The notes below the pieces were generated by a model that saw only the letters and a list, made by a program, of their open reading frames with translations, ran no database searches and was not told the DNA's origin. A DNA stretch of 64,000 bases, taken from positions 1-64,000 of the forward strand of contig DASWRM010000079.1 in assembly GCA_036403155.1 (NCBI GenBank), in the 5' to 3' direction. The stretch is from Gaiellales bacterium (GTDB lineage: Bacteria; Actinomycetota; Thermoleophilia; Gaiellales; JAICJC01). Positions 7,033 through 11,212 of the stretch are shown piece after piece. Numbering within the stretch: position 1 is the stretch's first letter; every line of letters begins with the position of its first letter. The translations under genes were made by a program, and so were the position numbers.

Positions 7033-8736
7033 TCACATCTGCGAGTACTCGGGACCGCTGCCGCCCTCGGCCGGCGTCAGCCGCCCGCCCTTGGCGGTGA
7101 TGGCGCCGCACTGCACGCAGTTCGACGGCGCCAGCTTCAGCTGGACGGTCGGCCCGCCGTCGTCGCGGCCGATCTCGTAGACCGCCGCCGGGCACATCGC
7201 AATCCATGCCTGAGCCACCTCGCGCGGCACGTTCTCCTGCACGCGGATGTGGTTGGGCTGGTCGTCCCGCGTCCTGTTGCCAGACAGGAACACGCTCGAG
7301 AGCTTGTCGAACGTGAGCTTCCCGTCCGGCGCCGGATAGACCCGCTTCCCGGGATGCGGCTCGACGGTCGCGTCCGCGTCGCGGTGGAACGTCCAGTTGC
7401 CCGGGGGCAGCGCGCCCCGCGAGACGTCCATCAGCCCGCCGATCGGCCCGCCCAGGGCGAACCCCTTCGCCAGCGCCTGGCGCATGTTCCGCACCTTGCG
7501 CAGGTCGCTCCAGATGTGGCTCGCCTGCACGCTGCGGTCGTACCCGGCAAGCGCGTCCGGCGCCGACACGTCGCCGCCCGCCTTCAGCTGCTCGTAGATC
7601 GCCTCCGCGGCGAGCATCCCGGAGCGCATCGCGTAGTGGATGCCCTTCAGCTTCGGCACGTTCACGAAGCCGGCGCTGTCGCCGGTGAGCACCGCCCCCG
7701 GCATCGACAGGCTCGACGGAAATGCGAGGAAGCCCCCCTCGGGGATCGTCTTGGCGCCCCAGCCGATCCGCTCGCCGCCCTCGAGCATCGAGCGGATCAT
7801 CGGGTGCGTCTTGAACAGCTGCAGCGAGTCGTGCACCGACAGCGTCGAATCGCGGTAGTCGAGCCCGAGCACCAGCCCGATCGCGAGCATGTCGGGCCCC
7901 ATCGGATAGATGAAGCTGCCACCGATCTCCCGGTCCTTGCGGGTCGTGCGAAACGGCCAGCCGAGCGTGTGGATCACCCGGTCGAGCGGCTTTGCCACCC
8001 GCCACACCTCCTTGACGCCGAGGCTCCACGCCTGCGGGAAGCGACCGGACAGCCGGAAGTGCTGCATGGCGGCGCCCGCCAGATGCCCCTGCGTGCCCTC
8101 GGAGAGCACGGTCGCCTGCGCGTGCACCTCGACGCCGGGCTCGAATGACCCGGTCGGCTGCCCGTCGCGGTCGAGCCCCTTGTCGCCGGTCTTGACGCCG
8201 CGGACGGCCCCGCCGCCGATCAGCAGCCGCTGCGCATCGGTCTCGGGCAGCACCATGACGCCCAGCTCCTCGGCCTGCTCGGCCAGATGCCGGCCGAGCT
8301 GCGAGAGCGAGAAGACCAGGTTGCCCTTGTTGTGGAAGGGCGGCGGCGTGGGGATCCGGATCTCGAACTGCCGGGTCATCAGGAACACGGACTCCCTGGT
8401 GACCGGGCCGAAGCAGCCGGGCAGCGTGGCCGGATCCGTGCCGGGGAAGAGATCGCGCAGCGCGGTCGGGTTCACGACGGCGCCCGACAGCAGGTGCGCG
8501 CCGGCGACGCGGCCCTTCTCGAGCACCGCCACCGGCGTCTCGCCCAGCCGCTCCGCGGTGGCCGCGTCGTCGTTCAGCAGCTGCTGGAGACGGATGGCGC
8601 CCGCGAGCCCGGCCGGTCCGGCGCCGACGAAGACGACACCGACGTCGATCCGCTCGTCCTCCTCCGCCTCGGGCGCCTGGACGAACTCGCCCACCTTGAC
8701 CGGAGGCGGGTATGAGCTCGGGCGCCGGGCTGCCAT
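7033..8736 (-). CDS. Electron transfer flavoprotein-quinone oxidoreductase
   Basis: Membrane-associated FAD/Fe-S enzyme that passes electrons from ETF to the quinone pool; 567 residues. The Rossmann FAD motif [17 protein letters not shown] is near the N-terminus, with [12 protein letters not shown] and [22 protein letters not shown]-type FAD contacts downstream. The C-terminal ferredoxin-like domain has MCPAAVYE and NCVQCGAIT. Canonical enzymes have one Cys in CPAxVYE plus three in CVHCKTC; here the last is missing (CVQCGAI), leaving three possible cluster ligands. ATG 8736 is placed 7 nt after a minus-strand TAGCAT box (8744-8749). It is on the opposite strand to etfBA but functionally linked. 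Confidence 0.95.
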
Positions 8737-8789
8737 GCGGGCGATGCTACCCGAGCGCACGGGGCCGGCGCCGCGGCTACCCGCCCGCT

Positions 8790-8963
8790 CTACCGGCGGG
8801 TCGGGCGGCGCACCAGCTCGCCGCCGCAGTTGGGGCAGACGCCGTCCATTGCGGCGGCGCAGGCGGGACAGAAGGTGCACTCGAAGCTGCAGATGCGGGC
8901 ATCGTCCACGGCGTCCAGCGGCCGCTCGCAGCGCTCGCACGCGGTGCGCATCTCCAGGGCCAT
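8790..8963 (-). CDS. DUF1272 zinc-ribbon protein
   Basis: A 57-residue Cys-rich protein. It matches DUF1272: an [16 protein letters not shown] start, an [15 protein letters not shown] core and a [13 protein letters not shown] end. Eight cysteines, several in CxxC pairs, suggest two zinc sites. Function is unknown; members are found next to diverse genes. It starts 23 bp from the divergent threonine aldolase start and the two share a double -10 box at 8969-8978. Its own -10 (TATCGT on the minus strand, 8974-8969) is 5 nt before ATG. Confidence 0.88.
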
Positions 8964-8968
8964 GCGAC

Positions 8969-8978
8969 ACGATACCCT
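8969..8978. promoter_or_regulatory. Bidirectional promoter with overlapping -10 boxes
   Basis: On the minus strand TATCGT (complement of 8969-8974) serves DUF1272. On the plus strand TACCCT (8973-8978) serves ltaE. The boxes share the central TA at 8973-8974. The two start codons are only 23 bp apart, so both mRNAs must be leaderless or nearly so, and two polymerases could not open the site at once. The same geometry recurs at 36805-36814. Confidence 0.6.
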
Positions 8979-8986
8979 GCACCGCC

Positions 8987-10018
8987 ATGCGCCCCGTCGA
9001 CCTCCGCTCCGACACCGTCACGCGGCCCACGCCGGAGATGCGCCGCGCCATGGCGGACGCCGCGGTGGGCGACGACGTGTGGGGCGACGATCCGACGGTG
9101 ATCGAGCTCGAGCGGGAGGTCGCCCGCATGCTCGGGAAGGATGCGGCGCTCTACGTTCCGTCGGGCCACATGGGCAACCAGGTGGCAATCAGGTCGCAGA
9201 CGCGGGTGGGCGACGAGATCCTCGTCCACGAGCTGGCGCACGTGGTCGTCCACGAGCAGGGTGCCTGCGCGGTGTTGTCCGGTGTGCAGACGCGCATGGT
9301 CGCCGGGGAGCGGGGGATGCCGGATCCCGACACGCTTGCCGGCTGGCTTCGCGATCCGTCCGACGTGCACCATGCGCGCCAGAGCCTTGTCTGCCTTGAG
9401 AACACGGTCGGCGAGCAGGGTGGGCTGGTCTACCCGCAGGAGCGGATCGACGCCGTCGCCCGGTTCGCGCGCGAGAGGGGGATGGCCGTGCACATGGACG
9501 GCGCGCGCCTGTGGAATGCTGCGGTCGCCTCCGGGAGCGACCCCGCGCGCATCGTCCGGGACGTCGACAGCGTCTCCGTCTGCTTCTCCAAGGGGCTGGG
9601 CGCTCCGGTTGGCTCGGCGGTGGTCGGGAGCGCCGGGATGATCGACACCGCCCGGCGCAACCGCAAGCTGTTCGGCGGCGGCATGCGGCAGGCGGGGATC
9701 ATCGCCGCCGGTGCGCTGCACGCCCTGCGCCACCACGTCGAGCGCCTGGCCGAGGACCATCGGAATGCGCGCGCGCTGGCGGAAGGGCTCGCCGGTTCCC
9801 GGCGGCTGCATGTCGACCCCGACCGCGTCGAGACGAACATCGTCTTCGCGACCGTGCCGGAGGGCGAGGACGCCGGCGCGCTCGTCCGCGAGATGGCGGA
9901 TGCGGGTGTGCTGTGCGCCGATCTCAACCCCGCCACGATCCGCTTCGTGACCCACCTCGATGCGGGGGAACAGGCCGTTTCCGACGCCCTGGAGCGGTTG
10001 CGCCCGCTGCTACGATGA
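8987..10018 (+). CDS. ltaE: Low-specificity L-threonine aldolase
   Basis: PLP enzyme cleaving L-threonine/allo-threonine to glycine and acetaldehyde; 343 residues. Family start [16 protein letters not shown], the [11 protein letters not shown] substrate loop, and the PLP lysine in [14 protein letters not shown] (about residue 200) are all present, as is [11 protein letters not shown] with the PLP-ring Asp. ATG 8987 is 8 nt after TACCCT. The last codons overlap the -10 box (TACGAT, 10011-10016) of rpmE. Glycine metabolism is also represented by glyA at 14462. Confidence 0.95.
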
Positions 10019-10022
10019 GGTC

Positions 10023-10229
10023 ATGAAGACAGACATCCATCCCGACTACGTCGTCGCCCGGGTGCACTGCTCGTGCGGCAACGAGTTCCTGACACGCTCC
10101 ACCAAGCCCGAGCTCTCGGTCGAGATCTGCTCCGAGTGCCACCCGTTCTACACGGGCAAGCAGAAGCTGGTCGACACCGGCGGCCGCGTCGAGCGGTTCC
10201 GGCGGCGCCAGGCCCGCAGCGGCTCCTAG
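10023..10229 (+). CDS. rpmE: 50S ribosomal protein L31 (zinc-binding form)
   Basis: A 68-residue L31: MKTDIHPDY start, [11 protein letters not shown], then [25 protein letters not shown]. The CSCGN and CSECHP cysteine pairs indicate the C+ (zinc-binding) paralogue. The -10 box TACGAT ends 6 nt before ATG, so it is probably leaderless. Position ahead of prfA and prmC is the usual actinobacterial arrangement. Confidence 0.97.
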
Positions 10230-10291
10230 CGAGCCCTTGCCTTCCGGGTGCGCTCATCGTGGGCGTCCCGCATGCCGACAATGATTGCGAC

Positions 10292-11212
10292 ATGAGCGCG
10301 AACGTTGGTGGACAGGCCGTCCTCGAGGGCGTGATGATGCGCACCCCGTCCTCGTGGTCGGTCGCCGTGCGGCGGCCCGACGGCGGGGTGTCGTGCATCT
10401 CGAACCCGGTCAGCAGCCCGGCGTCCCGGCGCGGGTGGCTGCGGCTGCCGGTGATCCGGGGCATCGTCGCGCTGGTCGAGTCGCTCACGATCGGATTCCG
10501 CGCGCTCGCCATCTCCGCCAGCGTCGCTGCCCAGGAGGAGGGCGACGACGGCGAGGTGTCGGCCGAGCTGACGCGCGGGCAGCTGCTGTTCGCGTTCGCC
10601 ATGGCGATCGGGTTCACGGTGATCGTGTTCAAGGTCTCGCCGGCCGTCCTGACGGAGCTGCTGCCGATCCACTCGACCGGCCTGTTCGTCGTCGTCGAGG
10701 GGCTGATCCGCGTCACCCTGCTGATCGCCTACCTGGCGCTGATCTCGCTGATCCCCGACCTGCGCCGCGTCTTCCAGTACCACGCGGCCGAGCACAAGGC
10801 GATCAACGCCTACGAGGACGGGGCCGAGCTGACGCCCGAGCGCGTGCAGACGTACTCCAAGATCCACCTCCGCTGCGGCACGGCCTTCCTGCTCTGGGTG
10901 ATGGTGATCGCGGTGTTCGTGTTCGCACTGGTCGGCCGGCCGGCATGGCCCGTGCTGATCGCGTCGCGCGTGCTGCTGCTGCCGGTCATCGCCGGCCTCG
11001 CGTATGAGCTGATCCGGTTCGGCGGCAAGCATCCCAGGAACCGCATCGTCCGCACGCTGCTCGCTCCGGGGCTGTGGCTGCAGGGGCTGACGACGCGCGA
11101 GCCGACGCTCGACCAGGTCGAGGTCTCGATCAACGCCCTGCGCGACGTTCTGGCGGCCGAGGAGCGCTCGCGCGCCGAGCGCGGCGAGAGCCGAGTCGAG
11201 GTCATGGCCTAG
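10292..11212 (+). CDS. DUF1385 membrane protein
   Basis: A 306-residue conserved membrane protein (YqhQ-like). The N-terminal NVGGQAVLEGVMMRTP motif and the central RRVFQYHAAEHKAINAYE motif, with paired His/Glu, define DUF1385. About four to five hydrophobic segments are visible (near residues 105-125, 130-150, 215-235, 238-255). It commonly sits next to prfA and rpmE in Actinobacteria and Firmicutes, but no biochemical role is established. The conserved His/Glu suggests metal binding; this is inference. No strong promoter was seen; a weak GACAAT lies 9 nt upstream. Confidence 0.9.
   Translation: MSANVGGQAVLEGVMMRTPSSWSVAVRRPDGGVSCISNPVSSPASRRGWLRLPVIRGIVALVESLTIGFRALAISASVAAQEEGDDGEVSAELTRGQLLFAFAMAIGFTVIVFKVSPAVLTELLPIHSTGLFVVVEGLIRVTLLIAYLALISLIPDLRRVFQYHAAEHKAINAYEDGAELTPERVQTYSKIHLRCGTAFLLWVMVIAVFVFALVGRPAWPVLIASRVLLLPVIAGLAYELIRFGGKHPRNRIVRTLLAPGLWLQGLTTREPTLDQVEVSINALRDVLAAEERSRAERGESRVEVMA

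What the first reader, a model, noticed from the sequence alone, without database searches (positions are those of the whole stretch)
8969..8978. Divergent leaderless genes sharing a 10-bp double -10 box (ltaE / DUF1272)
Two opposite -10 hexamers overlap by the TA dinucleotide; start codons are 23 bp apart. Symmetric -10 elements are known to give divergent transcription in bacteria. Here both products are real genes with essentially no intergenic DNA, so one melted region serves two genes and the two directions should compete.
Basis: partly seen in the sequence, partly recalled or inferred. Interest (0 to 1): 0.55.

Follow-up and report, generated by a model that had tools for sequence, protein, structure and literature searches.

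The report
Shared two-way promoter between leaderless genes
Two back-to-back bacterial genes lie so close together that one ten-base promoter core probably starts both of them, in opposite directions and right at their start codons; it is one of a conserved set of such spots, a compact version of a promoter type already known.

Summary
In detail: ACGATACCCT (8969-8978) holds two opposite TANNNT hexamers sharing one TA, 8 and 5 nt from the ATGs of a GntG/threonine-aldolase-family gene (+) and a DUF1272 gene (-), 23 bp apart. One locus alone is weak evidence, because one extra A completes the second hexamer. Wider evidence supports it. In sampled parts of the genome 165 of 686 called genes carry TANNNT 5-10 nt before the start, the leaderless signature. 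In the five held genomes of its family (class Thermoleophilia) the box is kept (A[CG]GATAC[CGT]CT), 8 nt from the aldolase ATG. In one of them DUF1272 is not found and the reverse hexamer stands 7 nt before the GTG of ETF-QO instead. In 725 kb such boxes sit between divergent coding starts far more often than other-letter boxes (5/50 against 4/2074), and 11 orthologous pairs carry a box in two or more species. Two registers stand out, matching the 18- and 23-bp spacings of known bidirectional promoters. I conclude it is a leaderless bidirectional promoter: known mechanism, new compact variant. Competition between directions is not shown, and E. coli data argue against it at basal activity. No RNA was measured.

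The parts
8969..8978 (.). 10-bp double -10 box ACGATACCCT (ANNNTANNNT)
   Evidence: kept in 5 of 5 held family genomes
8973..8978 (+). -10-like hexamer TACCCT for the aldolase gene, 8 nt before its ATG
   Evidence: the 8-nt distance is the same in 5 of 5 held family genomes
8969..8974 (-). -10-like hexamer TATCGT for the DUF1272 gene, 5 nt before its ATG (6 nt in three relatives; in G213 7 nt before the ETF-QO GTG)
8987..10018 (+).
8790..8963 (-). DUF1272 gene, 57 aa, cysteine-rich, predicted leaderless; N-terminus MALEMR identical in 4 of 4 family copies
7033..8736 (-). ETF-QO-family gene downstream of DUF1272; in G213 its orthologue is itself the divergent partner of the box

Best explanation
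A leaderless bidirectional promoter. RNA polymerase holoenzyme recognises the AT core ANNNTANNNT in either orientation; the shared TA gives the first two bases of both -10 hexamers. Bound one way, it melts the core and starts RNA at or within a base of the aldolase ATG; bound the other way, at or within a base of the DUF1272 ATG, about 24 bp away on the other strand. Both mRNAs would begin at their start codon and be translated without a Shine-Dalgarno sequence, so the whole non-coding control region is 23 bp. Shown: the sequence anatomy, its conservation, a different reverse partner in one genome, and the excess of such boxes between divergent coding starts. Inferred: the transcription starts themselves, the use of both directions, and the sigma factor. 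That two polymerases cannot use one core at once follows from geometry; that this changes expression at basal activity is not claimed.
For: Leaderless background: TANNNT ending 5-10 nt before the start in 165 of 686 called genes of G000, 88 of 395 in G009, 61 of 346 in G193; in G000 the peak is at 6-9 nt against about 2 hexamers per position further upstream. Locus conservation: box and 8-nt aldolase spacing in 5 of 5 held family genomes; 8 of 10 box bases invariant against 32 of 123 fourfold sites of the aldolase gene; all 5 A/T bases of the box invariant against 1 of 10 fourfold sites that are A/T in G000. Different partner: G213 has no DUF1272 match, and its ETF-QO gene, 71% identical to the window's, begins with GTG 7 nt from TATCCT. 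Class: 12 of 16 examined own-genome hits (of 17) have coding ORFs on both sides; 5 of 50 boxes against 4 of 2074 other-letter boxes; over three genomes 7 of 81 against 5 of 263 boxes with one hexamer intact. Partner base is A at 7 of 17 in-register sites against 23 of 391 elsewhere. Registers: of 53 divergent hexamer pairs, 7 share TA and 7 are TANNNTA; no other register exceeds 4. 11 orthologous pairs carry a box in two or more species.
Against: No RNA data. The DUF1272 gap of 5 nt is short. At a single site the second hexamer costs one base. An AGGG ends 11 nt before the DUF1272 ATG, so a weak, distant Shine-Dalgarno there is not excluded. The gene caller is home-made and its start choice noisy: the pair at C3:7156-7184 appeared and was lost on retraining, though a start-independent scan finds it. 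G213 is 81% complete, so DUF1272 may lie elsewhere in it, but the place beside the aldolase is taken by ETF-QO. The search tool's own control (pattern read backwards) gave 17 real against 16 in G000 and 19 against 18 in G213, though 25:13, 27:14 and 32:14 in the other three. Class-wide ATG-only counts are not enriched in f6 (20:22) and f7 (85:94), are reversed in f9 (165:235), and are flat in f4 (6:5), f5 (72:61) and f12 (6:8). The swapped-box control in that scan lacks any leaderless hexamer, so part of its excess could come from one-way leaderless promoters.
Confidence: 0.8

Rival explanations
1. One-way promoter: the box is the leaderless promoter of the aldolase gene only; the reverse hexamer is a one-base coincidence and DUF1272 is read from a start inside the aldolase gene or hardly at all.
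For: Only one extra A is needed; its background frequency is about 6%. The reverse gap of 5 nt is unusual. On the aldolase side the gap is 8 nt in 5 of 5 genomes, while the reverse side varies 5-7 nt.
Against: A at box position 1 is kept in 5 of 5 held family genomes, and in G213 a different gene starts 7 nt from the reverse hexamer. In three sampled genomes the partner base is A at 7 of 17 in-register sites.
Confidence: 0.13
2. Two ordinary promoters with leaders: each gene is read from a promoter inside the opposite coding region, and the box is not a core promoter.
For: Divergent promoters lying inside neighbouring genes occur in bacteria (general knowledge). An AGGG ends 11 nt before the DUF1272 ATG (by reading).
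Against: No sigma-70-type site (-35 plus -10) was found in 8600-10300. No Shine-Dalgarno-like stretch is seen before the aldolase ATG (by reading). The box is more conserved than fourfold sites.
Confidence: 0.05
3. Chance: the 23-bp gap is simple gene packing and carries no promoter.
For: Close divergent called starts without a box also occur (for example gaps of 17, 18 and 29 bp in the list).
Against: Conservation of the box's A/T bases in genomes of about 70% G+C and the excess of boxes between divergent coding starts.
Confidence: 0.02

Closest known systems
Bidirectional promoters with symmetric -10 elements (Warman, Grainger and colleagues; their Nat Microbiol 2021 paper is not held here; content taken from PMC10268837, passages, and PMC12825309, abstract and sections 4, 14, 22)
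   Same: Shared -10 bases on opposite strands; the predicted start distance of 24 bp lies within their 7-25 bp definition and next to the 23-bp class; boxes of the 18-bp kind are also found in the sampled genomes.
   Different: There, starts were mapped and five promoters were tested in vitro in E. coli, with -35 elements. Here both predicted starts are the start codons, so no 5' leader and no separate intergenic region exist, and no -35 signal was seen in a logo of 165 genes.
Leaderless genes of Actinobacteria with TANNNT -10 (PMC3160421, PMC3898074, PMC3890552; passages read)
   Same: TANNNT at a like distance from the start codon; no conserved -35 in M. tuberculosis; about 20% of genes in most genomes of one group in PMC3160421 and 33% of mRNAs in C. 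glutamicum.
   Different: The passages I saw treat genes singly. PMC3898074 reports divergent leaderless genes Rv1129c/Rv1130, but their listed starts (1254510 and 1254630) are 120 bp apart, so they do not share a box. It also notes that closely juxtaposed divergent promoters are common in M. tuberculosis.
Overlapping divergent promoters of lysG/lysE in M. tuberculosis (PMC5648196, passages read)
   Same: Divergent genes with overlapping promoter elements; one lysE transcript is leaderless.
   Different: 108 bp intergenic region with a regulator's inverted repeat; the leaderless start is at a second promoter, not the overlapping one.
Archaeal BRE-TATA-BRE bidirectional promoters (PMC6640164, passages read)
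   Same: One AT core used in both directions.
   Different: Different factors (TBP/TFB), starts about 50 bp apart, and the reverse RNA is taken to be non-functional antisense RNA.

Membership tests
Bacterial bidirectional promoter (shared -10) | Opposite -10 elements sharing bases in a known register | tested here: met
   ANNNTANNNT at 8969-8978; this register stands out among registers
Bacterial bidirectional promoter (shared -10) | Divergent transcription starts 7-25 bp apart | not testable with these tools
   24 bp if both RNAs start at the start codon; no 5'-end data
Bacterial bidirectional promoter (shared -10) | RNA made in both directions from the core | not testable with these tools
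   Indirect only: conservation and a different partner in G213
Leaderless gene (actinobacterial type) | TANNNT about 5-10 nt before the start codon | tested here: met
   8 nt and 5 nt; the sampled genome has a peak at 6-9 nt
Leaderless gene (actinobacterial type) | No Shine-Dalgarno element | tested here: inconclusive
   By reading: none before the aldolase ATG; before the DUF1272 ATG an AGGG ends 11 nt upstream, at the far edge of the 5-13 nt range quoted in PMC3160421 (passage)
Leaderless gene (actinobacterial type) | mRNA 5' end at the start codon | not testable with these tools
   No RNA data
E. coli-type sigma-70 promoter with -35 | TTGACA-like -35 at 16-18 nt | tested here: not met
   0 found in 8600-10300; no -35 signal in the 165-gene logo

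The most novel reading that the evidence does not exclude
In leaderless-rich lineages the -10 symmetry of RNA polymerase sets gene spacing itself: divergent genes settle at start-to-start distances fixed by the 18- and 23-bp bidirectional registers, the box persists as a conserved unit while the genes beside it can be exchanged (DUF1272 against ETF-QO here), and two-way promoters can therefore be read from sequence alone, even in uncultured bacteria.
Probability: 0.45. Interest if true: 0.65.

Novelty: new variant of a known kind. Interest (0 to 1): 0.5.

Why it matters
Bidirectional promoters are normally found by mapping RNA ends. Where genes are leaderless, the start codons mark the RNA ends, so shared cores could be recognised and their evolution followed from genome sequence alone, in many uncultured species. 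That makes a testable set: which gene pairs stay locked to one core, and whether being locked couples or opposes their expression.

Tried and rejected
Tried and not used as support: (1) Called-start gaps alone: the divergent-distance list is too noisy because start choice shifts; replaced by scans that do not depend on the called start. (2) The search tool's own control (pattern read backwards) for the CAY/RTG pattern gave 17 real against 16 in G000 and 25:13, 27:14, 32:14, 19:18 in G215, G193, G283 and G213. I think it a poor control because it contains AT, far commoner than TA in this genome (boxes with central AT 185-254 per letter set, with central TA 50-69), and drops the start codons; taken at face value the G000 and G213 figures speak against the finding. 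For the ATG-only version it was 3 against 0 and 1. (3) An extended -10 G in both directions: present in G000 by reading, not kept on the DUF1272 side in the relatives. (4) Scan of named genomes with the aldolase alignment: of the 80 loci kept one is a near relative (Thermoleophilia MAG GZL_FP_2_bin.148, contig of the same length as G283's); the rest were not examined further. (5) Upstream stretches of 30 aldolase genes (one is our own): many outside the family look Shine-Dalgarno-led by reading, L091 and L095 look leaderless; not counted formally. (6) Alignment used wrongly oriented stretches for three loci and was discarded. (7) In one search one Fisher test used a miscounted total (2124); corrected to 2074. 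(8) Fisher and binomial values count each two-way site twice; per-site values are. (9) My note gives the ETF-QO hexamer one base off; the right place is 8744-8749.

Literature: nine searches were run. In the rows listed (at most 20 per search, of up to 465 papers) and in the passages I opened, I saw no paper joining leaderless genes with a shared -10 bidirectional promoter of two genes. The library lacks most subscription papers, so this is not proof that none exists. DUF1272 appears in one held paper (listing only).

Full report
What is there. At 8964-8986, 23 bp separate the ATG of a PLP-dependent aldolase gene (+, 8987-10018) from the ATG of a DUF1272 gene (-, 8963-8790). The middle is ACGATACCCT (8969-8978). 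Read on the + strand it gives TACCCT with 8 nt to the ATG; on the - strand TATCGT with 5 nt to the ATG; T8973-A8974 belong to both. The gene called ltaE fits the NCBIfam GntG family of PLP-dependent aldolases best (395 bits, cut-off 230); the L-threonine aldolase equivalog stays below its cut-off. The genome is a 3.2 Mb, 79-contig assembly. Its family is placed in class Thermoleophilia from L232, a record titled Thermoleophilia bacterium whose contig has the same length (11,931) as contig C116 of G283, a genome of the same family.

Are the genes leaderless? With a simple codon-usage gene caller that does not look at promoters, I called 694 genes in 725 kb of this genome, 686 of them with at least 60 nt upstream. 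TANNNT hexamers pile up 6, 7, 8 and 9 nt before the start (56, 41, 31, 20) against about 2 per position further up; 165 of 686 genes have one at 5-10 nt. The same holds in G009 (88 of 395) and G193 (61 of 346), and in G017 (0.181 hexamers per gene, 381 genes). In G080 and G018, one genome each from two other families of the class, the figure is about 0.06 (183 and 187 genes), at background in G018 and somewhat above it in G080. PMC3160421 (passages) detects leaderless genes at around 20% in 86 of 89 genomes of a group it links to Streptomyces and Corynebacterium, with a TAnnnT signal in high-GC groups; PMC3898074 (passages) reports TANNNT without a conserved -35 in M. tuberculosis. I saw no -35 signal in a logo of 165 genes and no sigma-70-type site at the locus. 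In the window, rpmE (TACGAT, 6 nt) and the ETF-QO gene (TAGCAT, 7 nt) each have such a hexamer too (by reading). Against it: an AGGG ends 11 nt before the DUF1272 ATG, so a weak leader signal on that side is not ruled out.

Is the start of DUF1272 right? The family profile begins at residue 2, and MALEMR is identical in the 4 family copies. Similar starts with ATG, GTG or TTG are readable in several loci of other families.

Conservation. DUF1272 is found in 30 of 299 genomes of the class and 4 of 5 of the family. Of 32 DUF1272 matches, 30 had loci; of these 30, only the 4 family ones have this aldolase within the roughly 1.5 kb of flank held. The aldolase is in all 5 held family genomes. The boxes are ACGATACCCT, AGGATACGCT, ACGATACGCT, ACGATACGCT and AGGATACTCT, always 8 nt from the aldolase ATG. 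They were found through the genes, not by searching for the box. Eight of ten box bases are invariant against 32 of 123 fourfold sites of the aldolase gene (Fisher p about 0.001); all five A/T bases are invariant, against 1 of 10 fourfold sites that are A/T in G000 (p about 0.002). In G213 DUF1272 is not found and the reverse hexamer TATCCT stands 7 nt before a GTG that opens a protein 71% identical to the window's ETF-QO. Loss of DUF1272 there or gain elsewhere both fit; either way the box has two different reverse partners.

A genome-wide class. CAY-N4-9-ANNNTANNNT-N4-9-RTG occurs at 17 places in the genome; I examined 16 (one had no locus) and 12 have coding ORFs on both sides. In the 725 kb sample 5 of 50 ANNNTANNNT boxes lie between two divergent coding starts, against 4 of 2074 boxes in which the four fixed letters are other A/T combinations; over three genomes (G000, G009, G193) 7 of 81 against 11 of 3519. 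In three further genomes: G017 1 of 6 against 1 of 132, G080 0 of 79 against 4 of 1597, G018 0 of 197 against 3 of 4864. Boxes with only one hexamer intact give 5 of 263 over the first three genomes (p 0.009). The cleanest test: where one TANNNT-type start has a divergent coding start in register, the single base completing the other hexamer is A at 7 of 17 sites, against 23 of 391 starts without such a neighbour (binomial p about 3e-5); T is not raised (2 of 17 against 78 of 391). The sister register TANNNTA (18-bp class) behaves alike: 8 of 47 boxes against 6 of 3757, and partner base A at 7 of 19 against 13 of 389. Among 53 divergent hexamer pairs, overlaps 2 and 7 occur 7 times each and no other register more than 4; one gene pair can enter that count more than once. 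Part of this preference is economy: these registers share bases, so the second hexamer needs one more A only.

Relatives. In G193 24 of 27 hits were examined and 17 are coding on both sides; in G283 25 of 32 (14); in G215 5 of 25 (2); in G213 5 of 19 (4). The score cut-off misses true cases: two of the DUF1272 pairs themselves (L187, L190) fail it. Eleven pairs have both flanking proteins matched between species and a box in each; five of these span the two genera of the family. Orthologous pairs without a box were not searched, so this is not a rate of retention.

Across the class. ATG-only pattern counts in 249 genomes, box against swapped box TNNNTANNNA: f1 13:2, f2 144:55, f3 32:8, f8 50:14, f10 168:55, f11 10:4 (not significant); no excess in f4 6:5, f5 72:61, f6 20:22, f7 85:94, f12 6:8; fewer in f9 165:235; total 771:563. 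The excess is present in the families of sampled genomes with a leaderless peak (f1, f2, f10) and absent in those of sampled genomes with little or none (f7, f9). The swapped control carries no leaderless hexamer, so this scan alone does not prove two-way use.

How it works and what is open. The best reading is a bidirectional promoter whose two RNAs begin at the start codons. Bidirectional promoters with starts 18, 10 and 23 bp apart are established in E. coli (PMC12825309, abstract and sections 4, 14 and 22 read; PMC10268837, passages), and the predicted 24 bp here fits next to the 23-bp class, for which small shifts are allowed. The claim that the directions compete is not supported by that work at basal activity. 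Nothing here measures RNA.

Noticed in passing
10011-10025: rpmE (L31) has its own TANNNT hexamer (TACGAT, 10011-10016) 6 nt before its ATG at 10023, overlapping the TGA stop of the aldolase gene, so it may be transcribed separately as a leaderless mRNA.
   Followed up: partly
8734-8749: The ETF-QO gene has TAGCAT on the - strand (8749-8744), 7 nt before its ATG at 8736; DUF1272 may therefore be a one-gene leaderless mRNA.
   Followed up: partly
L057, L331, L348, L354: One divergent pair family (names not tested; one side a short lipoprotein-like protein by reading) keeps the box AGCGTATCCT in three species, with two copies in G283.
   Followed up: partly
L054, L318, L365: The box is AGTGTAGCAT in L318 and L365 and its reverse complement in L054, beside matching proteins on one side; on the other side L318 and L365 have only a 10-codon ORF under my start choice, so the partner there is unclear.
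   Followed up: no
7910-10018 (+) and 7033-9129 (-): The frames of the aldolase and of ETF-QO stay open far upstream of the likely starts (list), so start calling by longest ORF would misplace both start codons.
   Followed up: no
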